A stretch of 64,000 nucleotides of DNA, from assembly GCF_907163125.1 (NCBI RefSeq), contig NZ_OU015319.1, positions 744,001-808,000 on the forward strand, read 5' to 3'. This document shows, piece by piece, positions 2,193-24,932 of this stretch (its first letter is position 1; every line of letters starts with the position of its first letter). The notes under the pieces are model-generated. The model saw nothing but the letters and a program-made list of their open reading frames with translations, did not search any database and was not told where the DNA came from. The position numbers were made by a program, and so were the translations under genes. The stretch comes from Cloacibacterium caeni (lineage in GTDB: Bacteria; Bacteroidota; Bacteroidia; Flavobacteriales; Weeksellaceae).

Positions 2193-2277
2193 GGAGAAAT
2201 GGCAGAGTGGTCGATTGCGGCAGTCTTGAAAACTGTTGACTGTAACAGGTCCGGGGGTTCGAATCCCTCTTTCTCCG
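2193..2277 (+). tRNA. tRNA-Ser (anticodon UGA)
   Basis: The acceptor stem GGAGAAA (2193-2199) pairs with TTTCTCC (2270-2276), with discriminator G2277. The anticodon loop CTTGAAA carries TGA, and there is a long variable arm as in serine tRNAs. The T arm contains GGTTCGAATCC. CCA is not encoded. A tyrosine-recombinase gene starts 260 bp downstream, so the 3' end of this tRNA is a candidate integration target. Confidence 0.96.
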
Positions 2278-2300
2278 CAAGTTGAAAAACAAAATCAAAC

Positions 2301-2336
2301 AAAACCCACTAAACTTCAATGTTTAGTGGGTTTTTT
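2301..2336 (+). terminator. rho-independent terminator after tRNA-Ser
   Basis: AAAACCCACTAAAC, loop TTCAAT, GTTTAGTGGG and six T. The stem is about 13 bp and the loop is short, 24 bp after the tRNA. Confidence 0.85.
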
Positions 2337-2392
2337 ATTTTCTGTGGTATTCAATTTTTTCAATAATTCTTAAAATTTAGGTGTCTTAAAAG

Positions 2393-2423
2393 GTGTCACT
2401 TATTTTAGTCTACCAAGTGACTC
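2393..2423. repeat. inverted repeat upstream of the integrase gene
   Basis: GTGTCACTT (2393-2401) and AAGTGACTC (2415-2423) form an 8-of-9 inverted repeat with a 13-bp spacer. It lies between the tRNA and the integrase gene, where arm-type or core recombinase sites would be expected. The function is inferred from position only. Confidence 0.4.
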
Positions 2424-2538
2424 CTCGAAATTTAGAAACTCCATTTAAAAGACAGTTTAGAGAGTGTTTCAATTTTTGTACATCTTGATTTTATAGGAAT
2501 TTAAAATTAAATTGTTTAACAAATAAAATCACCACATT

Positions 2539-3774
2539 ATGAATTCTACAGTATCTGTTCTTTTCTACATTAAGAGAGCAAAAGTTAATAAGGATGGCAT
2601 TTGTCCAATCTATGTTAGAGTAACGGTTAATTCCAAAAGATTTGAATTTAGTTCTAATAAATTTGTTGCTCCAGATAAATGGTCAGCAGAAGCTTCTAAA
2701 ATTAAAGGCAACAATGAAGAAGCTAGACTTATTAATAAACATCTTGAACTACTCAAATTTCAAATTTTAGAAGCTGAGAATAAATTAATTATAAAAAATG
2801 TACCAATTAGTGCAGACAGTCTAAGAGAAGAAATATTGGGAGTAAACACCACAAATAGAATGTTAATTCCCATATTTAGAGATCATAATGAAAAAATTAA
2901 AGTGCTCGTTGGTACGGATTATTCTCCAGGAACTCTAGAGAGATATAATACATCATTAAAACATACCCAAGATTTTCTTATGTGGAAGTTCCAAAAAGGG
3001 GATATTGACATTGTTGATATTGACCATGCTTTTATTACCGATTACGAATTTTGGTTAAGAAGTGTAAGAAAATGCGCAAATAATACTGCAGTTAAATATA
3101 TTAAAAATTTCAAAAAAATTATCAGAATTTGTATGGCAAATGGGTGGTTAGATAAAGACCCATTTATCAATTATAAGTCTAAAGTTAAAGTTGTCGAAAG
3201 AGTTTTTTTAACCCATACTGAAATCCAAACTCTACTAAATAAAAGTTTTGTTTCAGAAAGACTAGAATTGGTAAGAGACATTTTTATTTTCAGCTGCTTC
3301 ACTGGGCTGGCTTATGTGGATGTGAAAAAATTGACCAAAGAAAATCTAAATATTGGCATTGATGGCAATAAGTGGATTTTTACCCATAGACAAAAAACTG
3401 ACACTCCTTCAAGAATTCCTATTCTTCCAACGGCTGAGGGTATTCTTGAAAAATACAAAGATCATCCTCAATGTATTAATTCTAATATCTTACTCCCTAT
3501 TCTAAGCAATCAAAAAATGAATGCTTACCTCAAAGAAATTGCAGATGTTTGCGAGATTAATAAAGAGCTTACTTTCCATATTGCTAGACATACTTTTGCT
3601 ACTACTGTCACTCTCTCAAATGGTGTTCCGATAGAGAGTGTAAGTAAGATGCTTGGTCACACGAATATAAAGACTACACAGCATTATGCTAAAATTTTAG
3701 ATCAAAAAATTTCCACAGATATGCAGGTTTTAAAAGACAGATTAAAAGATTTGGAAATTTCTAAAATATCATAA
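2539..3774 (+). CDS. tyrosine recombinase (IntDOT-like integrase)
   Basis: A 411-residue integrase with the Bacteroidota layout: arm-binding N-terminus (SVLFYIKRAKVNKDGICPIYVRV), SAM-like core-binding domain (about 105-220), and C-terminal catalytic domain. Catalytic residues seen are HIARH (His347, Arg350), LGHTN, and nucleophile Tyr383 in THHY-like context (TTQHYAKI). The first catalytic Arg of the family is replaced in TGLAYVDVKKL, as in IntDOT-type enzymes. It lies next to tRNA-Ser and ahead of RteC and an excisionase-like gene, which fits an integrative element. A strong terminator follows at 3863. Confidence 0.93.
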   Translation: MNSTVSVLFYIKRAKVNKDGICPIYVRVTVNSKRFEFSSNKFVAPDKWSAEASKIKGNNEEARLINKHLELLKFQILEAENKLIIKNVPISADSLREEILGVNTTNRMLIPIFRDHNEKIKVLVGTDYSPGTLERYNTSLKHTQDFLMWKFQKGDIDIVDIDHAFITDYEFWLRSVRKCANNTAVKYIKNFKKIIRICMANGWLDKDPFINYKSKVKVVERVFLTHTEIQTLLNKSFVSERLELVRDIFIFSCFTGLAYVDVKKLTKENLNIGIDGNKWIFTHRQKTDTPSRIPILPTAEGILEKYKDHPQCINSNILLPILSNQKMNAYLKEIADVCEINKELTFHIARHTFATTVTLSNGVPIESVSKMLGHTNIKTTQHYAKILDQKISTDMQVLKDRLKDLEISKIS

Positions 3775-6792: not shown

Positions 6793-6948
6793 TTGTATTA
6801 AAATGTAAATTTTATTTTTCTAAATTAGCGACTTAAATAAAACTAATAATGAGCAAATTAATTAAGAAGATAAATTTACTAGAATTTACTTTATACCATC
6901 TGACTAGTCCTAAAAAACCGATACAGATTATAGGACAAAAATAAATAA

Positions 6949-7800
6949 TTAAACCAAAGTAAAAACGTTTTTGCTTTGGTTTTTGTTTTTATAGGTTTTG
7001 ATTTTTAATTTTTCTTGTTTGTGCATTTGGTTCGGAGTAAGATAATGATTAGAAAAATGAGGCCTTAATTCATTATAAATTTTAATTGATTCGTCTACTA
7101 TTTTTCTTTTGATTTTTGTTTCAACATCAAATTTATCAATATCAAATTCTTGTTTTAAAATTCCATTTATTCTCTCTGCCACCGCATTTTCATAAGGGTC
7201 AGAGTTTTGAGTCATGCTACATTTAATATTGTTTTTTTCTAAGATTCTTTGATATTCATCACTACAGTATTGTAATCCTCTGTCTGAGTGATGAATTATT
7301 GATTTTAGAACAGGTTCCTGATTTTTTATCGCTTTATTTAATGCCAATAGACTTCCTTCTGTTGTTAAGTTTTCGGCAACATGATGCCCCACAATTTTCT
7401 TGGAATACGCATCAGTTATTAAACTTAAATAACTTGGGTTTTTTCTATTTCCAATGTAGGTAATATCTGCTACCCAAACTTGGTTGGGTTTTGTAACTTG
7501 ATAATCTGACACTAAATTTTTATGCTTTCTAAAGCGATGATGGGAGTTCGTGGTAACGTGGTAACTCCTTTTGGGTATTATTAATAAATGGTTGGCCCGT
7601 AAAATATTAAAAAATTTATCCCTTCCAATTTTTAGCTCTTTTAAAGGTTCGCTTAATAAAAAATACAGTTTCCTTCCGCCAAGTTTTGGCATCTTTATTC
7701 GGATATCTTCCACTAAATCCACCACTTGTTCTGCTTTATTCCTACAGGCTTTACTACGCTTTGTACTTCTATAATAGACTTGTCTATTCCAACCAAACAA
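6949..7800 (-). CDS. IS3-family transposase OrfB (DDE integrase domain)
   Basis: The frame from 7800 gives 283 residues with an rve-type catalytic core: VWVADITYIG (first Asp), IIHHSDRGLQY (second Asp) and NAVAERINGILKQEF (Glu), spaced as in IS3 transposases. The TTG at 7800 is probably not the real start. The frame is open upstream into the end of orfA in the -1 register, so OrfB is expected as an OrfAB fusion made by -1 frameshifting on the A-rich run complementary to 7821-7832. Confidence 0.9.
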   Translation of the reverse strand: MFGWNRQVYYRSTKRSKACRNKAEQVVDLVEDIRIKMPKLGGRKLYFLLSEPLKELKIGRDKFFNILRANHLLIIPKRSYHVTTNSHHRFRKHKNLVSDYQVTKPNQVWVADITYIGNRKNPSYLSLITDAYSKKIVGHHVAENLTTEGSLLALNKAIKNQEPVLKSIIHHSDRGLQYCSDEYQRILEKNNIKCSMTQNSDPYENAVAERINGILKQEFDIDKFDVETKIKRKIVDESIKIYNELRPHFSNHYLTPNQMHKQEKLKIKTYKNKNQSKNVFTLV

Positions 7801-7814
7801 TCCACAGGTAAAAA

Positions 7815-8249
7815 TTAGGGTTTCTTTTTCTTCTCTGCGGAAGTCATTGATTGTTCGGGTGGTAAGTTTTTTCTGATATCAATTTGATACTCTTTTTCTG
7901 CAAGGTTTATCATCATATCAAAAATGATGGCCTTTTTATCTGCAACATAAGCCTGTTTTTCTAAAAATGCTTTCTGTTTTTGAAGCAGTTTTACTTCAGC
8001 TTCTAACTCCATGATGCGTTGTTCTGGTGTTTTAGACATATTGGTTGGTGTTTGGTTTTCCCAATCAAAGTTACCATATTTTCTTAACCAACTCACTACT
8101 GTAGAGCGTGATTGGATACCGTACTTTTTCTTGCAAGCGGTAATTCCTAGTTTTCCTTCTTCGATATCTTTCACGATTTGAAGTTTTAAACTTAAACTGT
8201 AATCTTTCTGTGTTCGCTTTAAATAAAGCATTTCTTGTTGTTCTTGCAT
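7815..8249 (-). CDS. IS3-family transposase OrfA
   Basis: A 144-residue protein with an N-terminal HTH for binding the terminal repeats (SLSLKLQIVKDIEEGK, then KKKYGIQSRSTVVSWLRKYG). A leucine-zipper stretch for multimer formation follows (RIMELEAEVKLLQKQKAFLE). It ends in a Lys-rich tail encoded by the run where ribosomes can slip into orfB. Length and layout are typical of IS3 OrfA. Confidence 0.88.
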   Translation of the reverse strand: MQEQQEMLYLKRTQKDYSLSLKLQIVKDIEEGKLGITACKKKYGIQSRSTVVSWLRKYGNFDWENQTPTNMSKTPEQRIMELEAEVKLLQKQKAFLEKQAYVADKKAIIFDMMINLAEKEYQIDIRKNLPPEQSMTSAEKKKKP

Positions 8250-8814
8250 AACGATGTTTTTTTGTGTATCGCTATTTCAGGACTAGACAATCCTTTCAAA
8301 AAAAAATCTCATATACAGATTATTGATGATATTTTTAGTTATTCATTAGATAATCTAAATACCGGTAAATCTACAATAGTTAAATTTGAAAAATTTGATT
8401 CAAATGATATGATTGAGCTTATAAAAAACTTAAATAAATTAGATTTAAAAAACTGGAAAAAAAATTATGTATCGTATAAAATTCCAAATTCAATCGAATG
8501 GAATTTAATTTTGCTGTACAATGATAATAAGACTGTTTTTGAATATTATGGTTCAAATGAATTCCCAATCCCTCATAAAATATCTTCACCTTTTCATCCA
8601 TTATCTTCTACTTCTTATACTCCCGAATTTATTTTATTACTCAAAAGTTTAAATAAATTTATGGGGAAAAGAACTTTTTTTAAATAAAATTTAATTCGTT
8701 TTATCGTCTTTTATTCCAAATTTTAAGGTTTTCCTTATTTTAAGATAGATAGCTTTTTTGTATATTTACGGTTTTAGAACTATACAAACATTATAAACTC
8801 ATATTTTATATTTT

Positions 8815-11800
8815 ATGCTAATTGATAACCATTCTTCTGATAAAAAAGTTTATAGTTGGATTGAAAAATATATTGCAGAAGGTGACTTCTCATTAGTGAC
8901 AGGTTATTTCACTATCGGTGCACTTGTTTTCTTTTCTAATTTGGCACAGAAAAAGATAAATAACTATCGTTTTATTTTAGGAGATATAACACAGCGTGAT
9001 TCTGGTATAGTTAAATCATTAGATTTACTGAATGCTGATTTAAGTATAGAAAAGGCACTATCTCTAAAAAAGATTGCTTTGAATGCTGTTGAATTTTTGA
9101 AACTTGACGAAGTTTCTGTTAGAACTTTAGAACCTAATTTCTGCCACGCAAAATTGTATTTATTTAATAGTAAAGACAATGATCCTAAAAATCACTTTTA
9201 TATTACAGGTAGTTCTAATCTTACAGAAGCGGGGATTGGTCTTAAAGAATCACATAACATTGAACTTAATGTTGCAGACTTTGGAGGGAGTTCCCAGTAT
9301 AAAGATCTTCAGGACTGGTTTGAAAATTTATGGAATCATGAAAAGGCATTTAATGAAAAAATCATTGTTGATGATAAAGGAACAGAAAGGACAGTCAAAT
9401 TTAAGCAATATCTCATTGATGAAATTAGTAAATTGTTCCAAGATTATTTACCTAAAGATATCTATTATAAAATACTGTTCGAATTATTCTCACAGGACAT
9501 ATTTATTGATATAGATAATCCAGATTTTGCAAAAAAAATTGGAAGATTAGAAAATTCTGAAATATATAATGCTCTATATGAATTTCAAAAGAAAGGGGTG
9601 ATAAGTCTTATAAAGAGAATTGAAAAATATGATGGAGCAATACTGGCTGACGCTGTAGGTTTAGGTAAAACTTGGTCAGCTTTGGCGGTAATGAAGTATT
9701 TTCAAAATCAAGGCCGAGACATCGTAATGTTTTGTCCCAAAAAATTGGAGCAAAACTGGCTGAAATTCAGAAAAGGGCAAGATTCACGCTTTGAAAAAGA
9801 TGGTCTTGAATATGCGATAAGATATCATACAGATTTGGTAGAATCTTTAATGTCGAAAAATGAGTATGTAAAAGAAAGAGCAGATTTCAACTTTACAAAT
9901 AAAAAACCAAAGCTTTTTGTTATTGACGAAAGTCACAACCTCAGAAATGATAAATCTAGCAGATTTAATTACTTACTGGAAAAAATAATTCAAGAAAATG
10001 AAGATGTTAAAATTCTTCTATTGTCTGCTACGCCTATCAATAATTCATTTAAAGATGTAAGAAATCAAATAAAATTGATTACTGCAGGTAATGATGAGGC
10101 ATACGATGAAAAATTGGATATTAAGAATCTCTATAATTTATTTATAAATACCTCAAAACATTTTAATGAATGGCAATCTAAAATGGGCAGTCCAATTTCT
10201 GATTTAGTGAAAAACCTTGATGATTCTTTTTTTAGATTAACTGATGCTTTGATTGTTGCTAGAACTCGTAAAATGATTGTAGGTCAGCAAGAGGGCCTAG
10301 TATTTCCTATAAAGCAAAAACCTATAAATAAATATATCACTCCTAAGGTGATGGAAAATATTGATACATTAGATGAATTGATAAGTTTATTTCCTCCTTC
10401 TTTATCAGGCTACCAACCAAAATATTATACGCTTACCAAGAAAGAAAAAGAGATTAGAACAAAACAAATAATTGCAGGCACTTATGATAGAGATGTTCTC
10501 GAAGATGATATTCAGAGAGATTTTTTCCTTGTCAAAATGATATATATATTATTATTAAAACGGTTAGAATCTTCATGGTACTCTTTTGAATCTACTGCAA
10601 AGAAAATTTTAGACCATCATAACAATGCATTGAACAAAGTACTGAGGTACAAAGATTCTAAAAGCAAAACTGAATCAGATGATTTTTCTTTAGAGGATTT
10701 CGAAGATTTCGAAGATTTCGAAGATTTAACACTTGGTAAAAGAGAAATTAAAATTGATGACATTGCTAAATCTGGCAATCTGGATGTTTTTGAAAAAGCA
10801 CTTAATAAAGACATCCGCAAACTAGAAAAACTAATTTTTGGAATGAATGAGTTTTCTGAAACGATAAAAGCAGAAACTGAAAAACAGAATAACCTTAGTA
10901 GTGCAGACACTAAATTACAGGAGTTGATTAAAGTGATCAATGAGAAAAGAGAAGCTGGTAATAATTCTAAAAATCAAAAAATTCTAATTTTTACAACCTA
11001 TACAGATACAGCTGAATATCTGTTTAATCAGTTGATGGCTCGTGGGTTTACAAAAATAGCGATGGTCAGTGGGGCAGGTGCTAGAACAGATGATAATCTA
11101 GAGTTGCAAAAGCATTTCGAACCTGTTTTAGAACGTTTTGCTCCATATACCAAACTCTTTGTAGAAAAGAAATGGGAAAATTTTCATTCTGAATCCAAAA
11201 GTCACAATAAAAAATATAAAGATTGGAAAAAATGGGTTTCAGAAATAGATCCAAAAGTTACAGCAAAACTAAATAACCCAATCGATATATTAATAGCTAC
11301 AGACACTTTAAGTGAAGGGCAAAATCTTCAGGACTGTGATATGGTAATCAATTATGACATTCACTGGAATCCTGTTAGAACTATACAACGTGTTGGTCGT
11401 GTGGACCGTCTTGGTTCACCCAACAATGAGGTTTTCACTGTAAATTTCTGGCCAGCAGATAATATCAATGAATACTTGAATCTTCAGGGGAGAATTGAAA
11501 GAAGAATGGCAGCCATGAAAATTATTGGTTCCGAAGATATTAAAGATTTTACAGAACATTATTCAGACATTGCCACAGATCCAGAATTGGATAACAAACA
11601 TACAGATAGAATGCTCGAACAAATGCAGAATAGTATTGATGAACTAGATGCTGAAAAGTCATTCGGTTTTGATGATCTTTCGCTGGAAACTTTTAGACAG
11701 GATTTAGCCGTAGAGTTAAATGAAAGAAGGCAGTATTATGAAAACCTTCCAAATGCCATTTTTTCTGGTGTAAAACATACGAAATCAAAGAATGTCGATA

Positions 11801-12240
11801 GTGGTAAAGGACTCATTGCATTATTAGGATCACCACCAAAGAAGCCACACGAAAAGAAAAATTATCAAACAATGCGTCTGGTATACCTTAATAATAATGG
11901 TGAAGAAATTCTTTTGAATGATAAAGATATTTTGCAATACCTTAATGAAGTAAAAGAGCAGGAGCGTTTTGGTTGTGAAAAACTAGATGTAGGAGAAACT
12001 GCTGAAGTAAATAAATATTCAAACGCAATAGAAAAATGGTTTATATCACAGCAGAAAGAAATTTCACAAGATAAAAATGGTAATGAGATTGTTACAGCAG
12101 GGAAAGAAAGTATTTCCTTTTTGAATAACTTCATGAAAGGTAAAAATAAAGAAATAAAAGAAGCCAAAAAAGGAGAGAAAATTTCTAAAAAATACAACAA
12201 AGAGAATTGGGATTTAATCGCTTGGATAACAATTAATTAA
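8815..12240 (+). CDS. PLD-nuclease / SNF2-family helicase fusion
   Basis: 1141 residues. The N-terminal domain (about 1-180) is phospholipase-D-like: FCHAKLYLF gives His111 and Lys113 of an HxK motif, followed by GSSNLTEAG at 132-140 and a conserved Glu. The rest is an SF2 helicase of the SNF2/HepA type: motif I ADAVGLGKT (ends 286), motif II DESH (371-374), motif III SATP (404-407), and motif VI QRVGRVDRLGS near residue 860. A methylase gene starts 10 bp later, so they form an operon. PLD nucleases act in some restriction enzymes (BfiI) and in DISARM (DrmC). I infer a restriction or anti-phage translocase, but the exact system is not one I can name. Confidence 0.8.
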   Translation: MLIDNHSSDKKVYSWIEKYIAEGDFSLVTGYFTIGALVFFSNLAQKKINNYRFILGDITQRDSGIVKSLDLLNADLSIEKALSLKKIALNAVEFLKLDEVSVRTLEPNFCHAKLYLFNSKDNDPKNHFYITGSSNLTEAGIGLKESHNIELNVADFGGSSQYKDLQDWFENLWNHEKAFNEKIIVDDKGTERTVKFKQYLIDEISKLFQDYLPKDIYYKILFELFSQDIFIDIDNPDFAKKIGRLENSEIYNALYEFQKKGVISLIKRIEKYDGAILADAVGLGKTWSALAVMKYFQNQGRDIVMFCPKKLEQNWLKFRKGQDSRFEKDGLEYAIRYHTDLVESLMSKNEYVKERADFNFTNKKPKLFVIDESHNLRNDKSSRFNYLLEKIIQENEDVKILLLSATPINNSFKDVRNQIKLITAGNDEAYDEKLDIKNLYNLFINTSKHFNEWQSKMGSPISDLVKNLDDSFFRLTDALIVARTRKMIVGQQEGLVFPIKQKPINKYITPKVMENIDTLDELISLFPPSLSGYQPKYYTLTKKEKEIRTKQIIAGTYDRDVLEDDIQRDFFLVKMIYILLLKRLESSWYSFESTAKKILDHHNNALNKVLRYKDSKSKTESDDFSLEDFEDFEDFEDLTLGKREIKIDDIAKSGNLDVFEKALNKDIRKLEKLIFGMNEFSETIKAETEKQNNLSSADTKLQELIKVINEKREAGNNSKNQKILIFTTYTDTAEYLFNQLMARGFTKIAMVSGAGARTDDNLELQKHFEPVLERFAPYTKLFVEKKWENFHSESKSHNKKYKDWKKWVSEIDPKVTAKLNNPIDILIATDTLSEGQNLQDCDMVINYDIHWNPVRTIQRVGRVDRLGSPNNEVFTVNFWPADNINEYLNLQGRIERRMAAMKIIGSEDIKDFTEHYSDIATDPELDNKHTDRMLEQMQNSIDELDAEKSFGFDDLSLETFRQDLAVELNERRQYYENLPNAIFSGVKHTKSKNVDSGKGLIALLGSPPKKPHEKKNYQTMRLVYLNNNGEEILLNDKDILQYLNEVKEQERFGCEKLDVGETAEVNKYSNAIEKWFISQQKEISQDKNGNEIVTAGKESISFLNNFMKGKNKEIKEAKKGEKISKKYNKENWDLIAWITIN
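10695..10728 (+). repeat. 9-bp tandem repeat inside the helicase gene
   Basis: About three and a half copies of GATTTCGAA encode a repeated Glu-Asp-Phe unit (residues about 627-639), in an acidic linker between the two helicase halves. Nine bases keep the frame, so copy-number change would alter linker length and not inactivate the gene. Confidence 0.75.
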
Positions 12241-12250
12241 ACTAATAACA

Positions 12251-15200
12251 ATGAACTTAGATTATTTTAATACTAAAACTCTTTTTGAAGCAGGAACAAA
12301 ATTTTTTGAAGACTTAAATATTCCAATCAACACATTTGAAGATTCAGCATTTAAACCTGAAGATGTACTCCATGAAAAGTACAACCCAAAGAATCTGTCA
12401 CATCAACTTATTGAAAAAATTTACGTTTTGGGTATTGTTGATGATTCAGCATTTAAAGGTAAAACCAATTTTGATTCATATACTGAAGTACAAAAACTAG
12501 GTGGTGATTATTCAGGTCTTGTGATATTAGCAGTTGAATTGAAAACTCATAATCCTTTAAGATCTCAGCTGTCAGAGATTACAAGGGTTTTAAACCGTTC
12601 TTTTATAGCAACGCCTGTTACAGTTATTTATAAATATGGGAATTGTATAGCTCTTGCCAATAGTGAAAGAATACCTTATGCAGTTAGATTTAAAGAAGGT
12701 GAAAAAGTAGGTAAAGTAATTCTCTTGAGAGACATTAATCTTTTAAATGTTCATTCTGGTCATTTACGAATTTTAAAAAACCTTGAAATAGAAAGAAGTG
12801 GTAAAAATTCTGTAATTGATTTCAAATCACTTTATAAATATTGGCAAGATGTTTTAAGTGTCTCTATCTTAAATAAAGTTTTTTATAAAGAATTATCAAA
12901 TTGGTATTTCTGGGCAATTAACGAAGTTAGATTTCCTAATGAGCCTAACCAATTAGAACTTGGGGTAGATAATAAGAAGTTTGATGAAGTTTTGAAAGAA
13001 CACAGAGGGAAAAATGTAATTCGGCTATTGACACGTTTGTTATTTATTTGGTTTATCAAAGAAAAAGGATTAATTCCAGAAGAAATATTTGATGAAAAAG
13101 AAATAGCAAAACACTTTATTGATGGATTTACTCCAGAAAAACCAAAAGGAATGTTCGCTAATGGTAAATACAGCAGTAAATACTACAGAGCGATTTTGCA
13201 GAATCTTTTTTTTGCAACCTTGAACCAGCCTCGTGGTGAACGCCAATTCAGAACAGATGGTAAGCATATGAATGCCACGCAATTAATGCGATACAAATCT
13301 TATTTAAAGGAACCCGATTATTTCATAGAATTAATGGAAGGTAAAGTTCCTTTTATGAATGGAGGCCTTTTTGAATGTTTAGATAAACCACACCCTACAT
13401 TAAAAAGTTCACACGGTGGAGATAAAATAATATATGTAGACGGTTTTTCAGATAGAGAAGATAATGATTTGATAGTTCCAGATTTCTTATTCTTTGATAC
13501 CGACGAAGAGTTAGATTTAAGTAAGGAATATGGGAATGCTAAATCTAAAAAAGAAAAAACACGTGGATTATTTAATATTTTAAAATCATATAAATTTACG
13601 ATAACAGAAAATACTCCAATTGATGAAGAGGTTGCACTAGACCCAGAATTACTTGGGAAAGTTTTTGAAAACCTATTGGCTTCTTACAATCCTGAAACTA
13701 AAACTACAGCTCGAAAGCAAACAGGTTCTTTCTATACACCACGTGAAATTGTAAATTATATGGTGGAAGAAAGTTTAATTGCTTATTTAAAAAATGAATT
13801 ATTAAATGAGGAGCCAGGCGTTGTTGAATTGGGGAAAGATCAAATAGCGTTATTTGGTAATGAGACTAAAAAAGGACAATTAACTTTAGAAACTAAAATA
13901 GATGAAAGTCCATTTAAAGGAAATGAAGTAGAATTAGAAAAAAAGTTACATCAATTAGTTTCTTTTTCTAATGTAAATCCTTTTGACAATATGCCAGAGG
14001 TACAAAAGAAAATTATTAAGGCTTTGGACACCTGTAAAATCCTTGATCCAGCTTGTGGCTCAGGAGCGTATCCAATGGGTATTTTACAAAAAATGGTGCA
14101 CATTTTACATAAAATAGATCCAAATAATACCGAATGGAAGCAACGTCAAATAGACCGCGTAAATGAAGCAATTGATCGCCTAGAGTATGTAGAAGATGCT
14201 GAGACTAAAAACAAGGCAATAAAAGAACTAAAAGCACAAATTGCAGATATTGAAGCTGCTTTTAATAACAATGAACTCGATTATGGGCGTAAACTTTTTT
14301 TAATAGAAAATTGTATTTATGGCGTAGATATACAACCTATCGCTACACAAATTTCTAAATTACGTTTCTTTATTTCTTTAGTAGTAGATCAAAAGGTTGA
14401 CCCAAATAAAGAAAATTTTGGAGTAAGGCCATTGCCTAACTTAGAAACTAAGTTTGTAGCAGCAAATACATTAATTGGTTTGCCAAAGCAAATAATGGGT
14501 AGTTTATTTGACAAAAGAGAAGTTAAAAAGTTGGAAGATGAACTCAAAAAAGTACGCCATAAATTATTTAGCGTTAAAACCCCAAGCATTAAAAGAGAAT
14601 TAAGGGCAAAAGATAAAGAGCTAAGAGAGGAAATGCAATTGGCTTTAGCTGAACAATTAGGAAATGAAACAGCACAACTTTTAGCACAATGGGATCCTTA
14701 TGATCAAAATACTTCCTCTCCTTTCTTTGATAAAGAATGGATGTTTGATATTTCAGATGGTTTTGATATTGTCATCGGTAATCCTCCATATGGGGTTTCA
14801 ATCAAGGATAAGTATAGAAAAGATGTTCTTAAACATTTAGGAAAAGTTCCTGATTTTGAGATTTATTATTACTTTATAGAAATATCAAAAAAATTATTAA
14901 AAGAAAATGGTGTTAAATCTTTTATAATTCCTAATACTTTTCTTTTCAATGTTTTTGCAAGTGATTATAGAATTAAATTGCTTAATAATTGGGATATAAA
15001 AATTATAGATTGTACATCCTTTAAAATTTTTGAAGGGGCTACAGTCTTTAATGCTATAACAATATTTATTAACTCAAAAAATAATGATTATATAGAGTAT
15101 AAAATAACTAAAAACGTTAATAATTTTGAGGAATTAGTTAACAATCAAAATGAAAGAGTAACAAAAGAAAATATTATTAAAAATAATCAGAATTGGTGTT

Positions 15201-15949
15201 TAATATTTAAACTTGAAAAAACAGTATTATCCTTGGTCTTAAAAATTAAAGAAAATTGTAAAAAACTTGCAGAATTATGTCCAGAAATCAGTCAGGGTTT
15301 AATTGCTTATGATAAATATAAAGGGCAAGATGAATATACGATCAAAAATAGAATTTTTCATTATAATTCGTTTGCGGATAGCAAATTAAAAAAATGGTTA
15401 TGGGGCAGTGATGTTAATAGGTATATTATAAAATGGAACGAACAGGAATGGTTAGATTATTGTCCACAAATTGCAAATCCAAGAGATCCAAAATACTTTA
15501 AAGGAGAAAGATTATTGATTCGAGAAATAACAAATCCTTCTGTTTACTGCGGTTATACAGAAGAAGAGCTTTATCATGATCCAGCTAATATTGTAATATT
15601 AAAAAGTGATAAATTCAATATTAAAGTACTAATGGCAATTCTAAATTCTAAACTTACTACTTTTTATCATTTCAACTCTTCACCAAAAGCAACCAAAGGA
15701 TCGTTTCCAAAAATTTTGGTTGAAGATATTAAAAATTTCCCTTTGCCAAGCATTGATAAAATTGTTGATACTGATATGTCAATAAAAGTTGATCAAATTC
15801 TCGAAGGAAAAAAAATCGGAGTAGATACTTCTGAACTAGAACATCAAATTGATGTTATGGTGTATCATCTATATAACCTATCCTATGAAGAGGCTTGTGT
15901 GATTGATGAGTCTTTAACTAAGGAAGATTTTAATAAGTATAGCATATAA
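12251..15949 (+). CDS. Eco57I-type adenine DNA methyltransferase
   Basis: 1232 residues. A long N-terminal region is of unknown fold, with a GGDYSGLVILAVELKTHNP stretch that could be a relic or active PD-(D/E)XK site. The SAM-binding motif LDPACGSGAYPMG is near residue 598 and the catalytic motif IGNPPYG is near 842-848. The last 300 residues (with SQGLIAYDKYKGQDEYTIKN and WLWGSDVNR) look like a target-recognition domain. This is the COG1002 layout seen in type IIG, BREX PglX and DISARM DrmMI enzymes, which make N6-methyladenine. It is cotranscribed with the PLD-helicase. Confidence 0.88.
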   Translation: MNLDYFNTKTLFEAGTKFFEDLNIPINTFEDSAFKPEDVLHEKYNPKNLSHQLIEKIYVLGIVDDSAFKGKTNFDSYTEVQKLGGDYSGLVILAVELKTHNPLRSQLSEITRVLNRSFIATPVTVIYKYGNCIALANSERIPYAVRFKEGEKVGKVILLRDINLLNVHSGHLRILKNLEIERSGKNSVIDFKSLYKYWQDVLSVSILNKVFYKELSNWYFWAINEVRFPNEPNQLELGVDNKKFDEVLKEHRGKNVIRLLTRLLFIWFIKEKGLIPEEIFDEKEIAKHFIDGFTPEKPKGMFANGKYSSKYYRAILQNLFFATLNQPRGERQFRTDGKHMNATQLMRYKSYLKEPDYFIELMEGKVPFMNGGLFECLDKPHPTLKSSHGGDKIIYVDGFSDREDNDLIVPDFLFFDTDEELDLSKEYGNAKSKKEKTRGLFNILKSYKFTITENTPIDEEVALDPELLGKVFENLLASYNPETKTTARKQTGSFYTPREIVNYMVEESLIAYLKNELLNEEPGVVELGKDQIALFGNETKKGQLTLETKIDESPFKGNEVELEKKLHQLVSFSNVNPFDNMPEVQKKIIKALDTCKILDPACGSGAYPMGILQKMVHILHKIDPNNTEWKQRQIDRVNEAIDRLEYVEDAETKNKAIKELKAQIADIEAAFNNNELDYGRKLFLIENCIYGVDIQPIATQISKLRFFISLVVDQKVDPNKENFGVRPLPNLETKFVAANTLIGLPKQIMGSLFDKREVKKLEDELKKVRHKLFSVKTPSIKRELRAKDKELREEMQLALAEQLGNETAQLLAQWDPYDQNTSSPFFDKEWMFDISDGFDIVIGNPPYGVSIKDKYRKDVLKHLGKVPDFEIYYYFIEISKKLLKENGVKSFIIPNTFLFNVFASDYRIKLLNNWDIKIIDCTSFKIFEGATVFNAITIFINSKNNDYIEYKITKNVNNFEELVNNQNERVTKENIIKNNQNWCLIFKLEKTVLSLVLKIKENCKKLAELCPEISQGLIAYDKYKGQDEYTIKNRIFHYNSFADSKLKKWLWGSDVNRYIIKWNEQEWLDYCPQIANPRDPKYFKGERLLIREITNPSVYCGYTEEELYHDPANIVILKSDKFNIKVLMAILNSKLTTFYHFNSSPKATKGSFPKILVEDIKNFPLPSIDKIVDTDMSIKVDQILEGKKIGVDTSELEHQIDVMVYHLYNLSYEEACVIDESLTKEDFNKYSI

Positions 15950-15958
15950 TTAAGTTTT

Positions 15959-16129
15959 ATGTCAAAGTTAAATGAAATTGCTGAGCAAGTTTGGCAGCAC
16001 CGTAAATTGGAAGTTCAGGACTATGTAACCAATAGAGCTGTTGCATTATACAATGTAATTATTAAAGGTAAAGAAGAAAAATACTGGCTACATAATAGTG
16101 AAATATCCCTGCTCTCCGAAGTCTCCTGA
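15959..16129 (+). CDS. short ORF behind the methylase, probably truncated
   Basis: The ATG lies 9 bp after the methylase stop and opens a 56-residue frame (MSKLNEIAEQVWQHRKLEVQ...). Spacing and composition suggest a third gene of the operon. The frame ends inside a perfect palindrome at 16114-16137, so the original 3' part may have been lost there. I do not recognise the family. Confidence 0.5.
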   Translation: MSKLNEIAEQVWQHRKLEVQDYVTNRAVALYNVIIKGKEEKYWLHNSEISLLSEVS

Positions 16130-16137
16130 CTTCGGAG
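16114..16137. repeat. perfect 10-bp hairpin, possible terminator
   Basis: CTCCGAAGTC, loop TCCT, GACTTCGGAG. It could end the restriction-like operon, but there is no T run after it. The arm sequence GAAGTCGGAAG-type recurs as a dispersed repeat elsewhere (for example around 56313-56394). Confidence 0.55.
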
Positions 16138-16857: not shown

Positions 16858-17515
16858 GAATCCTTGATTTCTCTTCCTCACAATGTGAATTTAGCATCTT
16901 GTGCTTTTCCGAAATCATTATCTCATTCAGCTGCACAAAAACCGTCTCTAGTCCAAGTATTCCTATAGCCAGTTATTTGTTTGCTTCATTTCGCTAATCT
17001 TAACGATGAGGTAAACAATTTTCCTCCCTTTAGGGATGGGGAAAAGAAAATTGTTTCCACCTACGATGACTAAGCTTGCAGTATTAAATAATTCGTTCTT
17101 TAAGACATCACTCTTTAATGACATAGGGAACGGAGGTGTAAAAACTCAAAATAAAATTTAAGTAACGTATTTTAATTGTCCTAGGAAACCGCAAGCGTTA
17201 AGAAAATGAATAGACTTTTCGTTAAAAAAGTCTGCTGTTTAAGCTCGGCATTCTGTCGAGTGAGTTTCAGAGTTTTTAGAAAAGAATATTCATTTTTAGC
17301 TGAGGATTTCCAGACTTGAAACCTAGCGAAGCGGTTCGCCGATTCCTTTGAAAATAATAAAATGATTGAGGCAACTTTTCGTTCTTTTGCATCAAGGCAA
17401 ACCTAACGAAGTGGTTCGACGACTTTATGGAGTCAAAAGGACATAAAAGACATAGATAAACCAAAACTTTTCCACACCCCCTAATTCATTTTGCTTTATT
17501 TTATACCTTTGAAAA
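16858..17515. other. 658-bp gene-free region with nested hairpins before umuDC
   Basis: No credible gene. It holds an 11-bp inverted repeat AAACAATTTTC/GAAAATTGTTT (17013-17023, 17046-17056) around a TCCC-TTTA-GGGA core, and a perfect 8-bp hairpin AGACTTTT/AAAAGTCT (17212-17233). A CTCG/CGAG loop lies at 17244-17260. Two related copies of a 20-base unit, CTAGCGAAGCGGTTCGCCGA and CTAACGAAGTGGTTCGACGA, lie at about 17323-17342 and 17402-17421. The density of structure suggests an RNA element or decayed mobile DNA. A TACCTTTG promoter element for umuD is at 17504-17511. Confidence 0.5.
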
Positions 17516-17983
17516 ATGAAATCCAAAATAGAACTTTTCAAACTCGAAAGCGATGAAAACATTGCTATCTCAGTCCTTCCTGCCAAAGTAAAAGCGGGTG
17601 GTTATGGCAGTTTTGAAAGTCCTGCTTTAGACTTCCCCGAAGACACCATAGACCTTTTAAAGCTCTTAATCAAAGACAAAGAAACCACTTTCTTTGCAAA
17701 GGTAACAGGAGATTCTCTTATTGGGATTGGGGTATACAATGAAGATATTCTTATCGTTCAGAAAGGACTATTCCCAAGAGAAAATGACATTGTAGTCGTA
17801 TTCTATCAAGGCGAATTTTATGTAAAAAGGTACAAACCGAAATACAAAGAAAACTCCCTAAAAATTGAAAGCATAAAACTTAAATCCGAGAACCCCAATT
17901 ACTCAGATATGGACATCAACGAAGATACAGACTTCGAGCTTTGGGGCGTGGCAACTTGGAACCTACACAAACTAAGAAAATAA
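17516..17983 (+). CDS. umuD: UmuD/LexA-type S24 peptidase
   Basis: 155 residues, the usual UmuD length. The self-cleavage site is VKA-GGYGSF (Ala27-Gly28). The catalytic Ser67 is in VTGDSLIG and the catalytic Lys104 is in GEFYVKRYK. There is no N-terminal DNA-binding domain, which separates it from LexA. In the SOS response UmuD trims itself and joins UmuC as DNA polymerase V. The stop overlaps the umuC start (TAATG), so translation is coupled. Confidence 0.93.
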   Translation: MKSKIELFKLESDENIAISVLPAKVKAGGYGSFESPALDFPEDTIDLLKLLIKDKETTFFAKVTGDSLIGIGVYNEDILIVQKGLFPRENDIVVVFYQGEFYVKRYKPKYKENSLKIESIKLKSENPNYSDMDINEDTDFELWGVATWNLHKLRK

Positions 17984-19248
17984 TGTACGGCTTAATCGAT
18001 GGCAATAACTTCTATGCAAGTTGCGAAAGGGTATTCCGCCCAGACTTGCGAAACAAACCCGTTGTGGTATTATCCAACAACGATGGGTGCGCCATTGCTC
18101 GTTCTAATGAAGCCAAAGCCTTGGGAATAAAAATGGGTCAACCATACTTCCAAATCCAACACCTAGAAAAAGAAGCTGGGCTAAATGTTTTCTCTGCCAA
18201 CTTCGTTTTGTATGGCGACATTTCAAACCGTGTGGTCAATATCTGCCGTAGATATTGCAAAGACATTGAAGTGTACAGCATAGACGAATCCTTCTTAGAT
18301 TTTCACGGCTATGAACATATAGACCTACAAAAACATTGTCTCGAGCTTAGAGAAAAAGTTCTCAAAGGTTTAGACCTTCCCACCAGTATCGGATTAGCAC
18401 CCACCAAAACCTTGGCAAAGTTGGCCAATAAAATCGCGAAAAAGTTTCCAGAAAAAACAAACGGCGTGTACAGCATAGACACCCCTCAAAAAATTGAGAA
18501 AGCCATCAAATGGTTCCCCCTAGAAGATATTTGGGGCATCGGAAGAAGATACTTCGAAAGATTTTCGGCAAGAGGCATCAAAACCGCTTGGGACTTTACC
18601 CAACTCCCAGAAGCTTTCGTCCAAAAAGAAATGGGAATCCTCGGACTAAGAATGCACCGCGAATTACGAGGAATACCACAATACGACCTTACCATTCCAA
18701 AACCCAAGAAAGGAATCGCCACCACCAGAACATTCGACAAAAGAACAGACGATTTAGAAACCTTGAAAGAAAGAGTTTCTACCTTCGCCTATAAATGCTC
18801 CGAGAAACTAAGAGCTCAAAAATCTTGCTGCAGATACGTGACCGTTTTCATTATGACCGACCGTTTCAAACAGGACTTAAAACAATACAGCAACTCCATC
18901 ACCATCACCTTAACCAATCCCTCCAATTCAGCGATTGAAATTTCCAAAGCAGCATTACAAGGACTGGAGAGAATCTACCTGCCATTTTTCCAATACAAAA
19001 AAGCAGGGGTAATGGTCACAGAATTCGTCCCCGAAACCGAGAGAATGACCTCATTATTTGATGAAGACCTCCACGCCAAACACCGCCCAATCATGCAAGT
19101 AATAGACGTGATGAACAAAAGACTAGGAGCAGATAAAGTCAAACTCGGCTCCATGGATGTCCAAAGAACTTGGAAGATGAACCAAAAGAACCTCTCCCCA
19201 CGCTACACCACAGACCTCCACCAAATCATCAATGTCAAAGCAAAATAA
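17983..19248 (+). CDS. umuC: Y-family DNA polymerase (Pol V catalytic subunit)
   Basis: The ATG at 17983 shares its A with the umuD stop codon and puts the polymerase motif YGLIDGNNFYASCERVF at the very N-terminus. An upstream TTG in the same frame is rejected because it would lie inside umuD. The product has 421 residues. The second catalytic motif SIDESFLDF, helix-hairpin-helix segments (DIWGIGRRYFERF) and a little-finger domain are present. The product performs translesion synthesis. Pol V operons are often carried on mobile DNA, consistent with this island. Confidence 0.95.
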   Translation: MYGLIDGNNFYASCERVFRPDLRNKPVVVLSNNDGCAIARSNEAKALGIKMGQPYFQIQHLEKEAGLNVFSANFVLYGDISNRVVNICRRYCKDIEVYSIDESFLDFHGYEHIDLQKHCLELREKVLKGLDLPTSIGLAPTKTLAKLANKIAKKFPEKTNGVYSIDTPQKIEKAIKWFPLEDIWGIGRRYFERFSARGIKTAWDFTQLPEAFVQKEMGILGLRMHRELRGIPQYDLTIPKPKKGIATTRTFDKRTDDLETLKERVSTFAYKCSEKLRAQKSCCRYVTVFIMTDRFKQDLKQYSNSITITLTNPSNSAIEISKAALQGLERIYLPFFQYKKAGVMVTEFVPETERMTSLFDEDLHAKHRPIMQVIDVMNKRLGADKVKLGSMDVQRTWKMNQKNLSPRYTTDLHQIINVKAK

Positions 19249-19728
19249 CACACTATCAGTTCCCCTCTTCTAGAGAACTGGCATTCCGAGAATCGGAATG
19301 ACGGGGTGTTTAATTCATGATACTTAAAGTTCCCCTCTTCTAGAGAACTGGCATCCCAACTGTTCAAAAAACGCAATACTTAAAGTTCCCCTCTTTTAGA
19401 GGGGTGGCATTCCGAGAATCGGAATGACGGGGTGTCTACTTCCAAAACTTCATAATAATTTTCCTCCCCGGTGGCTGAGCTTGTCGAAGTCAACCTGCCA
19501 AAGCCTGGTGGCAGAGCTTGTCGAAGCCCTATCCAAAAAATTAAGGTTTTCCGTAATTACATTTCATTCATTTTGTATAAATTTGTTAGAAACAAATATG
19601 TATAAACTCAAAATTACATCCAATCAAATAAAATTACTTGCAAACTAATATCTTATTTAATCAATATAATAGTTTCTAATAGTGTTAAAATATGACTTAG
19701 TAGAAATTTTAAAAAGTTAAACAATAAT
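19249..19728. repeat. repeat-filled spacer behind umuC
   Basis: No gene. Three copies of a unit beginning AGTTCCCCTCTTCTAGAG start at about 19259, 19327 and 19384. Two of them carry the small palindrome TTCCGAGAATCGGAA and the tail TGACGGGGTGT. At 19470-19526 two copies of GTGGCTGAGCTTGTCGAAG-type sequence follow, a repeat common between flavobacterial genes. The short frame from 19424 is built of these repeats and is not a gene. Confidence 0.75.
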
Positions 19729-20037
19729 ATGAAAAACATAGAATTAAATAGTGAAACATTTTGGGTTAAAATAGTTGATTTTCTTCAACAAAATTGGGCA
19801 TTAATTGAAATGATAGATGATAAAGTAATTGTTTATTTTATACAAGATGCATCTATGGTTTTTGACAAAATTGAATTTAAAACAATTGAGGACGCAGAAA
19901 AAGGACTTCTCAAAAACGGTTTTAAATTATATCTTGATAATAATGAAAATTTTCAAGATTTTATAGTTCCACCAAAAAAACCATATGGTGAATCCCCAAG
20001 ACCAATTTATTCATCTGGTCAATATTGGAAATTTTGA
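19729..20037 (+). CDS. small protein of unknown function
   Basis: 102 residues with good coding composition: SETFWVKIVDFLQQNWALIE, then VYFIQDASMVFDKIEF and a Pro-rich end (VPPKKPYGESPRPIYSSG). No signal peptide or recognised domain; the overall look is of small cytosolic proteins found near defence and mobile genes. ATG start preceded by an A-rich stretch. Confidence 0.6.
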   Translation: MKNIELNSETFWVKIVDFLQQNWALIEMIDDKVIVYFIQDASMVFDKIEFKTIEDAEKGLLKNGFKLYLDNNENFQDFIVPPKKPYGESPRPIYSSGQYWKF

Positions 20038-20175
20038 AAGTAGATGATTGATTTTAAAGAACTTACAAAACCCACATTTAATTAAACCGACAAAATCTGT
20101 CGTAAAACATCTATCTTAAAATCTCACATTCCCGATAATCAAAAAATCCCTACTTTTGATTAAACCAAAATCACC

Positions 20176-20820
20176 ATGTGCAACTACGTTAGAATAAAAT
20201 CCACCCCTAAAGAACTAGAACAAGCCTACCAAGCAGAATACAAAGGAGACGATTACGCCAGAGACGACAAAATCAACGGTTTTGCCAATCCTAAACTACC
20301 AGTGATTTTAGACCATGACACAGACCATATCGTTGCAGCGCAGTGGGGTTTCCTCCCAACTTGGGCTAAGGATAGCGAATTCGCTAAGAAAACCCTCAAT
20401 GCAAGAATGGAAGAAGTACACCAGAAGCCAACCTATAAAAACTACACCAATAACCGTTGCCTTATTTTAGTCAATGCTTTCCACGAATGGAAATGGTTGG
20501 ACGACAAAGGAAAAAGAAAAGACAACTACCTCATCAAAATCAAAGACCAGGAAATCTTTGCTATTGGTGGACTGTACAACATCTGGGTAAACCCAGCTAC
20601 AGATGAAGAAATACTTACCTGCACCATAGGAACCACGGAAGCCAACCCATTGATGGCAGAAATCCACAACACCAAACACAGAATGCCAATTCTATTAAAC
20701 AACCAAATCGAATACCGTTGGTTAGATGATATCCCAGTAGAAGACTTTCTATACCCAAACTACAATCCAGAACTCACAGCTCAAAATCTTACCAATTTAG
20801 AAAGCCAGTCATTATTTTAA
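20176..20820 (+). CDS. yedK: SRAP/HMCES-family abasic-site crosslinking protein
   Basis: 214 residues. Cys2 follows the initiator Met (MCNYVRI) and becomes the catalytic N-terminal Cys that binds abasic sites in single-stranded DNA. Other family blocks are QWGFLPTWAKD, LNARMEEVHQKPTYKN, CLILVNAFHEWKW and TKHRMPILL. The family shields abasic sites during replication and is often SOS-linked, so its place 1 kb after umuDC is fitting. A TACTTTTG promoter element lies at 20151-20158. Confidence 0.93.
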   Translation: MCNYVRIKSTPKELEQAYQAEYKGDDYARDDKINGFANPKLPVILDHDTDHIVAAQWGFLPTWAKDSEFAKKTLNARMEEVHQKPTYKNYTNNRCLILVNAFHEWKWLDDKGKRKDNYLIKIKDQEIFAIGGLYNIWVNPATDEEILTCTIGTTEANPLMAEIHNTKHRMPILLNNQIEYRWLDDIPVEDFLYPNYNPELTAQNLTNLESQSLF

Positions 20821-24733: not shown

Positions 24734-24932
24734 ACACGGTTATATCCTACAAAAATAGATATTTTATCAGTATTACAAATTCTTATTCAGTGATTTGAAG
24801 AGATAAATACAATGATGTAGTAAGACAAAAATATAGAAATTGATAAATTTCGGTAGGTATATTTTTTTATTTTGCTTAAATCAATTGACTTTTGTCTTAC
24901 TAATATTAAAAAATGATTTTATATTATAATGC

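What the first reader, a model, noticed from the sequence alone, without database searches (positions are those of the whole stretch)
8815..16129. PLD-SNF2 helicase plus Eco57I-type methylase: a compact restriction-like unit
A PLD nuclease domain (HxK at 111-113) fused to a SNF2-type helicase is followed after 10 bp by a 1232-residue COG1002 adenine methylase with its own target-recognition end. A third short frame starts 9 bp further. Known: class 1 DISARM pairs a SNF2 helicase (DrmD) with a PglX-like methylase but uses a separate PLD protein plus DrmA and DrmB, and type ISP enzymes put nuclease, motor and methylase on one chain. Here the parts are split into two proteins and the nuclease is on the motor. 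I infer a two-gene, ATP-driven restriction system with methylation protection, sitting in a mobile island.
Basis: partly seen in the sequence, partly recalled or inferred. Interest (0 to 1): 0.72.

Follow-up and report, generated by a model that had tools for sequence, protein, structure and literature searches.

The report
Two-gene restriction motor with swappable methylase
Two neighbouring genes in a mobile island most likely form an anti-virus system in which a DNA-cutting motor holds a DNA-marking enzyme through a small docking piece, so that the marking enzyme can be exchanged in evolution while the motor and its docking piece stay together.

Summary
In detail: an intact PLD(HKD)-SNF2 protein (8815-12240) and, 10 bp on, an intact Eco57I/TaqI-type adenine methylase (12251-15949). 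The third frame crosses a cassette edge (16112) and is no component.

The pair recurs outside DISARM and BREX: methylase downstream in 40 of 46 close-clade loci, the other 6 ending at a contig edge; 2 of 6 further loci lack it. In a same-genus genome the slot holds a Type I R-M.

New: the methylase is two modules. Residues 1-195 track the helicase (rho 0.89, 53 pairs); catalytic body (0.11) and recognition end (0.07) do not. The N-module is homologous to DUF4391 (hhalign 97%; score 76.7, shuffles at most 18.7), which lies directly downstream of a sister helicase in 29 of 29 plasmid records. Sister helicases, found with Type III Mod and mostly Res, have lost the PLD active site (HxK 0 of 22, against 53 of 53 in the fused form) but keep the motor motifs.

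Best reading: an ATP-driven R-M in which a DUF4391-type adaptor docks a motor onto exchangeable methylases; here the motor carries the nuclease, in the sister form Res does. Docking, cleavage and methylation are inferred. New variant of a known kind.

The parts
8815..12240 (+). HEL: HKD/PLD nuclease domain fused to a SNF2-type SF2 motor, 1141 aa
   Evidence: Pfam PLDc_2, SNF2-rel_dom, Helicase_C; PADLOC C3a139 'HKD+Snf2' E 1.9e-71; catalytic residues invariant in 13 rows
9145..9153 (+). HxK of the PLD active site (H111, K113)
   Evidence: at this column in 53 of 53 fused-form helicases and 0 of 22 separate-form ones
12251..15949 (+). MT: adenine methylase of Eco57I/TaqI type, 1232 aa
   Evidence: Pfam Eco57I and TaqI_C; motif I and NPPY-type motif in 53 of 53 relatives
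12251..12850 (+). MTN: N-terminal adaptor module of MT (about residues 1-200), DUF4391-like
   Evidence: co-varies with HEL, rho 0.889 for residues 1-195; hhalign to DUF4391 97%, score 76.7; AF2 of residues 1-220, pLDDT 88.4
14045..14065 (+). MTase motif I DPACGSG (residues 599-605)
   Evidence: alignment
14780..14791 (+). MTase motif IV NPPY (residues 844-847), adenine-N6 type
   Evidence: alignment
15392..15745 (+). TaqI_C target-recognition domain (residues 1048-1165); residues 831-1219 are 58% identical to a stand-alone type IIG-like enzyme (L085)
15959..16129 (+). junction ORF (56 aa), not a component
   Evidence: crosses the cassette edge at 16112; no homologue found
6795..16111 (.). cassette: in same-genus genome G005 this slot holds a Type I R-M
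   Evidence: Pfam HsdM_N, Methylase_S, HSDR_N on the G005 genes
6949..8249 (-). transposase pair at the left of the cassette (rve integrase core ORF plus helix-turn-helix ORF; IS3 type inferred)
   Evidence: HTH_28 just under its cut-off
2193..3774 (+). island end: tRNA-Ser (2193-2278) and tyrosine integrase (2539-3774)
   Evidence: same-genus G006 matches here only up to window 2341

Best explanation
An ATP-dependent restriction-modification system of two proteins. MT methylates adenine at its own target site and serves as the recognition subunit. Its N-terminal ~200 residues, a DUF4391-type adaptor, dock onto HEL. At unmodified sites on incoming DNA, MT loads HEL, which moves along DNA by ATP hydrolysis and cuts with its PLD domain; one HxK per chain implies that two HEL chains must meet to make an active site. 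Methylated host DNA is spared. The MTase body and recognition end can be exchanged while HEL and adaptor stay a matched pair, so specificity can change without rebuilding the motor. Shown by computation: anatomy, motifs, recurrent pairing, module boundary, homology to DUF4391, loss of the PLD site in the Type III branch, cassette slot. Inferred: docking, methylation, translocation, cleavage, defence.
For: Pairing: of 46 close-clade loci, 40 have MT downstream on the same strand; the other 6 end at a contig edge within 1.9 kb. Of 34 outer-clade loci, 25 have MT, 3 have DUF4391+Mod+Res, 6 end at a contig edge. Nuclease residues: HxK, GxxN and E150 are kept in 53 of 53 fused-form helicases, while in 22 separate-form helicases they are kept in 0, 3 and 2, although Walker lysine (22), DE (21) and motif VI Arg (22) are intact; there Res brings an endonuclease domain (2 of 2 scanned). 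So PLD catalysis is kept where no other nuclease is at hand. Methylase motifs: 53 of 53. Co-variation over 53 pairs: HEL versus MT 1-195 rho 0.889 (0 of 999 permutations as high), body 220-960 0.113, TRD 0.068; in the 35 close pairs 0.863, 0.128, -0.048. The body carries its own signal (segments correlate 0.74-0.84). Swaps: L120/L163 HEL 33%, MTN 23%, body 71%, TRD 73%; L120/L121 HEL 88%, MTN 79%, body 36%, TRD 18%. MTN-DUF4391: hhalign 97.0%, E 8.8e-11, score 76.7 against at most 18.7 in 100 column shuffles. DUF4391 lies directly downstream of the helicase in 29 of 29 plasmid records. TRD 58% identical to a type IIG-like enzyme. The slot holds a Type I R-M in G005.
Against: No methylome, restriction or binding data. 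Of 6 further close-clade loci found by helicase searches, 4 have MT (one truncated, one beside a fragmented helicase) and 2 do not: L032 (helicase lacks its last ~220 residues) and L241 (helicase split between contigs). HEL and MTN are neighbours, so co-inheritance may partly be linkage with recombination at the conserved start of the body; the correlation is alike with a gene inserted between them (0.85, 14 pairs) and without (0.87, 21 pairs), but linkage is not excluded. In 15 separate-gene loci DUF4391 tracks the helicase (0.52) no better than Mod does (0.59). In the 18 outer pairs alone MTN (0.38-0.45) and body (0.24-0.50) track it about equally. After culling to 18 close pairs the body rises to 0.37, MTN 0.85. 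The body correlation over all 53 is small but reached by only 18 of 999 permutations. A third helicase clade pairs with related bodies through N-termini without detectable homology to MTN (score 18.1 against shuffled maximum 18.0).
Confidence: 0.65

Rival explanations
1. MT is a self-contained type IIG restriction-modification enzyme with its own N-terminal nuclease, and HEL is an accessory.
For: Best PADLOC hits of MT are type IIG REase-MTases; body and TRD are shared with a type IIG-like enzyme, L085.
Against: The MT N-terminus is the DUF4391-like module; its conserved columns (R112, R140; near-invariant among others R104, N115, P122, K155, H168, H171) contain no PD-(D/E)xK set. The best-scoring stretches of the type IIG hits shown start at residue 439 or later (further stretches not shown). 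HEL carries the recognised nuclease domain, with its site kept in 53 of 53.
Confidence: 0.1
2. A stripped-down DISARM, BREX or BREX-related (BR) locus that needs other components encoded elsewhere.
For: HEL resembles DrmD and BrxHI; MT weakly resembles DrmMI and PglX. BR type 2 also uses an HKD-Swi2/Snf2 effector with an N6-MTase (PMC12839542, passages read).
Against: The window genome lacks PF09369 and DUF499. In 30 unit-bearing genomes PF09369 is in 5 and DUF499 in 1; PglZ is in 24, with frames of 474-653 aa (taken for housekeeping PorX, recalled) in all best hits but one of 854 aa. That genome (G937) also has the DUF499; both lie on other contigs than its unit (contig lengths). Scores are far below the NCBIfam cut-offs for DrmD (135 versus 610 bits) and BREX-1 PglX (70 versus 500).
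Confidence: 0.1
3. The methylase guides a suicide or host-damage response rather than classical restriction, HEL being triggered by phage proteins or DNA ends.
For: PbeABCD, with an HKD+SF2 helicase, was proposed to act without cleaving viral DNA, and suicide action has been suggested for such systems (PMC10853773, passages read).
Against: Recurrent pairing with a methylase bearing its own TRD fits self/non-self marking; Pfam shows no toxin domain in the unit.
Confidence: 0.12

Closest known systems
PADLOC candidate protein C3a139 'HKD+Snf2' (PDLC01075)
   Same: Same domain order; HEL matches at E 1.9e-71, the relatives L163 and L075 at 1.9e-133 and 4.3e-138.
   Different: The label names one candidate protein; I did not find its origin or an assigned system. 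It also matches L075, whose HxK is lost.
SNF2 helicase + DUF4391 + Type III Mod (mostly with Res) gene set (L075-L078, L232, L235, L237, L238 and others)
   Same: Same helicase superfamily (best plasmid hits about 28-31% identical to HEL); DUF4391 is homologous to the MT N-module.
   Different: Adaptor is a separate gene, the methylase is Type III Mod, Res carries an endonuclease domain, and the PLD site of the helicase is degenerate (0 of 22 with HxK).
BREX-related type 2 (BR type 2) systems
   Same: HKD endoDNase plus Swi2/Snf2 helicase effector with an N6-MTase (PMC12839542, passages).
   Different: Those have the DUF499 ATPase and DUF3780; the window genome has no DUF499.
CglI / NgoAVII
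   Same: ATP-dependent R-M with an endonuclease, a helicase-like ATPase and a methylase (starts of abstracts; PLD nature of the R protein recalled).
   Different: There nuclease and motor are separate proteins; the methylase is a 5mC enzyme (recalled).
Class 1 DISARM (DrmD + DrmMI)
   Same: SNF2 helicase and PglX-like adenine methylase (recalled; weak profile hits).
   Different: No PF09369 (DrmB) in the genome; nuclease fused to the motor; DrmD score far below the family cut-off.
Type IIG enzymes (L085 here; Eco57I, BpuSI recalled)
   Same: Methylase body and TRD; 58% identity over residues 831-1219 to L085, which matches a type IIG profile at E 2.3e-232.
   Different: A DUF4391-like adaptor stands at the N-terminus, where type IIG enzymes have their nuclease (recalled).

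Membership tests
Class 1 DISARM | DrmB (DUF1998/MZB, PF09369) beside the helicase | tested here: not met
   PF09369 absent from the window genome; present in 5 of 30 genomes carrying the unit. That PF09369 marks DrmB is recalled.
Class 1 DISARM | DrmD-grade helicase | tested here: not met
   NCBIfam DISARM_DrmD 135 bits against a cut-off of 610
BREX | PglZ beside the methylase | tested here: not met
   only PglZ match of the genome is a 514-aa frame about 0.89 Mb away
BREX-related (BR) type 2 | DUF499 ATPase | tested here: not met
   none in the window genome, 1 of 30 unit-bearing genomes
BREX-related (BR) type 2 | standalone DUF3780 | not tested
   only HEL, MT and 15 other window ORFs were scanned with Pfam
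PADLOC C3a139 HKD+Snf2 | near full-length match to the profile | tested here: met
   residues 86-1046 against profile 87-877 of 948, E 1.9e-71
ATP-dependent restriction-modification | motor, nuclease and methylase with TRD encoded together, motifs intact | tested here: met
ATP-dependent restriction-modification | methylation-sensitive, ATP-driven cleavage | not testable with these tools
   needs biochemistry
Type IIG | nuclease and methylase on one chain | tested here: inconclusive
   no Pfam nuclease domain in MT and no conserved PD-(D/E)xK set in MTN; residues 200-460 not examined structurally
DUF4391 (PF14335) | match over Pfam's gathering score | tested here: not met
   window MT gives no hit at E 0.1; outer MTs 21.9 and 16.1 bits against 29.9. 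The relation rests on profile-profile comparison

The most novel reading that the evidence does not exclude
DUF4391 and the N-terminal module of these methylases are one family of docking adaptors that couple one SNF2 restriction motor to unrelated methylases: Eco57I/TaqI-type by fusion, where the motor keeps its own PLD nuclease, and Type III Mod as a separate gene, where Res cuts and the PLD site has died. A plug-in restriction motor whose specificity changes by swapping whole methylase bodies; DUF4391 would get its first function.
Probability: 0.55. Interest if true: 0.72.

Novelty: new variant of a known kind. Interest (0 to 1): 0.6.

Why it matters
It explains how a restriction motor can acquire new target sites without remaking its contacts, proposes a function for a domain of unknown function, and unites gene sets that in the records seen are named only 'helicase-related protein', 'hypothetical protein', 'DUF4391' and 'site-specific DNA-methyltransferase'. 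The Type III branch, motor intact and nuclease site dead, is a natural experiment on which part cuts. It predicts chimeras that can be tested directly: moving residues 1-200 should move the partnership.

Tried and rejected
Third frame as a component: rejected (no homologue found; crosses the cassette edge).

First MTN-DUF4391 comparison with small alignments gave 0.3% probability; only with more, outer-clade sequences (60 and 11 rows) did it reach 97%. Pfam misses the link for the window protein.

Third helicase clade (about 25-28% identical): six of its MT N-termini (L039, L040, L042, L043, L047, L081) show no significant link to MTN. A first hit at 87% came from an alignment that included the shared start of the body and was dropped.

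Structure look-ups: MTN has no PDB match at E 0.001 and best Z 4.9; for DUF4391 the rows listed cover only the C-terminal helices. Neither shows that the fold is new.

Separate-gene loci as a second co-variation test: no extra signal for the adaptor.

Plasmid search with an outer MTN found 1 record only, so by this query the fused form is rare on plasmids of that collection.

Rechecking showed that their HxK is lost; mended. That result raised my confidence from 0.62 to 0.65 and the interest slightly, and lowered the type IIG rival.

Rows dropped: the 53-pair set excludes loci with helicase or methylase ORFs under 1000 aa and duplicates with identical helicases. In the tree the 16 separate-form rows include L216, where no DUF4391 was detected.

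Literature: 'DUF4391' occurs in 1 paper of the held library, not opened. The two-gene unit was sought: listings only, plus passages of PMC12839542, PMC10853773 and PMC3710099. None that I saw describes it. Subscription papers are not held.
Full report
WHAT IS THERE. The two ORFs lie at the stated coordinates, 10 bp apart. HEL (1141 aa) has PLDc_2, SNF2-rel_dom and Helicase_C domains; MT (1232 aa) has Eco57I and TaqI_C domains. H111/K113, GSSN, E150, Walker A, DESH, SAT and QRxGRxDR are invariant in 13 aligned helicases. Over 53 HEL-MT pairs, methylase motif I is present in 53 of 53 (49 by the first pattern, 4 as DPAVGSG) and an NPPY-type motif in 53 of 53. Both genes look functional.

THE THIRD FRAME. 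ORF 15959-16129 has no relative that I could find. In the same-genus genome G005 the DNA from window 16112 rightwards is present (87% identical) directly after a different gene, so the last codons of the frame belong to the flank. It is a truncated or accidental frame at a cassette edge, beside a perfect inverted repeat at 16114-16137.

SETTING. tRNA-Ser, a tyrosine integrase and an RteC gene open the island. The same-genus genome G006 matches at this place only up to window 2341, just past the tRNA. G005 has the left part at 96%. Between the points that match window 6794 and 16112 it carries a Type I R-M: HsdM_N/N6_Mtase, Methylase_S, a DUF3644 gene and HSDR_N/SWI2_SNF2 proteins. The slot therefore exchanges restriction cassettes.

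A RECURRENT UNIT. A first look in 199 relatives gave helicases at 52% and 48% identity besides the own one; methylase relatives were found in 16 of 395 genomes of the class at E 1e-60, the own genome included. A scan of the species collection with the helicase alignment kept the best 80 of 583 relatives. Of 46 loci in the close clade, 40 carry MT downstream on the same strand (25 within 200 bases, 14 with up to 3 kb between, 1 further); the other 6 end at a contig edge. Of 34 in the outer clade, 25 carry MT (24 downstream, one upstream), 3 carry DUF4391+Mod+Res, and 6 end at a contig edge. Of 6 more close-clade loci found by helicase searches, L031, L074, L240 and L242 have MT (truncated in L074, beside a fragmented helicase in L242); L032 and L241 do not. 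Some methylases are split, for example L107. Inserted genes include KilA-N, DUF1016/YhcG and Uma2 proteins. The nearest helicase is 77% identical, in Chryseobacterium sp. FP211-J200 (L103). Hosts include Bacteroidota, Cyanobacteriota, Nitrospirota, Pseudomonadota, Chloroflexota and others.

NOT DISARM OR BREX. In 30 genomes (own plus 29), PF09369 is in 5, DUF499 in 1; PglZ is in 24, with best-hit frames of 474-653 aa in all but one. The own genome has no PF09369 and no DUF499, and its only PglZ is about 0.89 Mb away. These are genome-wide counts; I did not scan every neighbour gene of every locus.

THE METHYLASE IS TWO MODULES. Pairwise distances over 53 pairs: HEL tracks MT residues 1-195 (rho 0.889, 0 of 999 permutations as high) but hardly the body 220-960 (0.113; 18 of 999 as high) or the TRD (0.068; 55 of 999). 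Within the close clade (35 pairs) the values are 0.863 (0 of 999), 0.128 (95) and -0.048 (737). A 60-residue sliding window over all pairs stays at 0.75-0.87 to residue 210, is 0.44 at 176-235 and 0.05 at 226-285; within the close clade it falls earlier, to 0.46 at 151-210. Segments of the body agree with each other at 0.74-0.84, so the body has its own history. Examples: L120 and L163 share body 71% and TRD 73% but MTN 23% and HEL 33%; L120 and L121 share HEL 88% and MTN 79% but body 36% and TRD 18%. Against this: in the outer clade alone (18 pairs) the contrast is weak (0.38-0.45 for MTN, 0.24-0.50 for the body). Culling the close clade at 70% helicase identity (18 pairs) raises the body to 0.37 with MTN at 0.85.

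THE N-MODULE IS DUF4391-LIKE. Plasmid relatives of the helicase are followed by DUF4391 and a methylase, often with a DEAD/DEAH helicase. Pfam confirms DUF4391 in 4 of 4 such proteins scanned, N6_N4_Mtase in 2 of 2 Mod proteins, and ResIII with an endonuclease domain in 2 of 2 Res proteins. In 16 separate-form loci Mod is found in 16, DUF4391 in 15 and Res in 13. Profile comparison of MTN (60 rows) with DUF4391 (11 rows): 97.0%, E 8.8e-11, score 76.7; 100 column-shuffled alignments reach at most 18.7, the reversed one 13.2. KilA-N and Mod controls stay under 1%. Pfam's own model finds the domain, under its cut-off, in MTs of L089 (E 1.9e-4) and L163 (0.011) at the matching place. AF2 models of MTN (pLDDT 88.4) and of a DUF4391 (85.3) share the core order helix, helix, long strand, short helix, strand, helix, three strands, two helices; DUF4391 has an extra strand and helix near its start and two long C-terminal helices, MTN an extra short helix. 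The models could not be superposed here. In 29 of 29 plasmid records with DUF4391 it lies directly downstream of a helicase of this superfamily: 24 by coordinates, 5 by annotation, of which 4 also match by tblastn and the fifth by profile (L236, E 2e-162). In the 8 of these 29 records whose neighbourhood I read, a 'site-specific DNA-methyltransferase' lies further downstream.

THE SISTER BRANCH HAS A DEAD NUCLEASE SITE. On one alignment of 75 helicases, HxK, GxxN and E150 are present in 35 of 35 close and 18 of 18 outer fused-form rows. In 22 separate-form rows HxK is present in 0, GxxN in 3 and E150 in 2, while the Walker lysine is present in 22, DE in 21 and the motif VI Arg in 22. In a helicase tree of 69 rows the separate-form helicases make one group (support 100) beside the outer fused ones (midpoint root, quick method). 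The PLD fold seems kept as a relic where Res can cut, and catalytic where no other nuclease is in the unit. This is the best evidence here that the PLD domain is the cutting part of the window's system.

HOW IT MOST LIKELY WORKS. MT reads and methylates its site; its adaptor holds HEL; unmodified foreign sites lead HEL to translocate and cut. The single HxK per chain implies dimerisation at the active site (general knowledge of PLD nucleases such as BfiI). The recognition end is shared with a stand-alone type IIG-like enzyme (58% identity to L085), so a defined m6A motif is expected. All functional steps are inference.

RELATION TO WHAT IS KNOWN. Swi2/Snf2-HKD effectors with N6-MTases are described for BREX-related type 2 systems together with DUF499 and DUF3780 (PMC12839542, passages), and HKD-SF2 helicases with ABC ATPases, DndE and methylases for PbeABCD/CxC systems (PMC10853773, passages). 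Five paper searches (listings) did not show the two-gene unit, and one found DUF4391 in a single paper, which I did not open. I therefore call it a new variant of a known kind; the modular adaptor, and the switch of the cutting part between branches, are the new elements.

Noticed in passing
L228 (G005:C11:397000-411500) versus window 6795-16111: The same island slot holds a Type I R-M cassette (with a DUF3644 gene) in a same-genus genome: a restriction-cassette exchange site.
   Followed up: partly
L075-L078, L232-L238, L033, L034, L152, L179, L182, L214-L218: SNF2 helicases with a PLD-like N-terminal region but no HxK (0 of 22), set with DUF4391 and Type III Mod, mostly with Res, on plasmids, viral contigs and chromosomes; in L233 and L234 an 'ATP-dependent endonuclease' and a DUF2130 gene sit inside the set.
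   Followed up: partly
window 17516-20820: S24 peptidase plus UmuC-type polymerase pair (17516-19248) and an SRAP protein (20176-20820) to the right of the cassette.
   Followed up: no
window 17177-17320 and 24932-25185: Short stretches found in several other places of this genome and of same-genus genomes.
   Followed up: no
window 8235-8687: 150-aa ORF between the transposase pair and HEL with no Pfam family over cut-off.
   Followed up: no
L079, L081, L089, L040, L043, L105, L112, L115, L145: An AAA_23/ABC-type ATPase of about 570-670 aa follows the methylase; such a gene is in 6 of 46 close and 5 of 34 outer loci.
   Followed up: partly
L039, L040, L042, L043, L047, L081: A third helicase clade pairs with related methylase bodies but an N-terminal module without detectable homology to MTN.
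   Followed up: partly
L032 and L241: Close-clade helicases without a methylase beside them; L032 lacks its last ~220 residues, L241 is split between contigs.
   Followed up: partly
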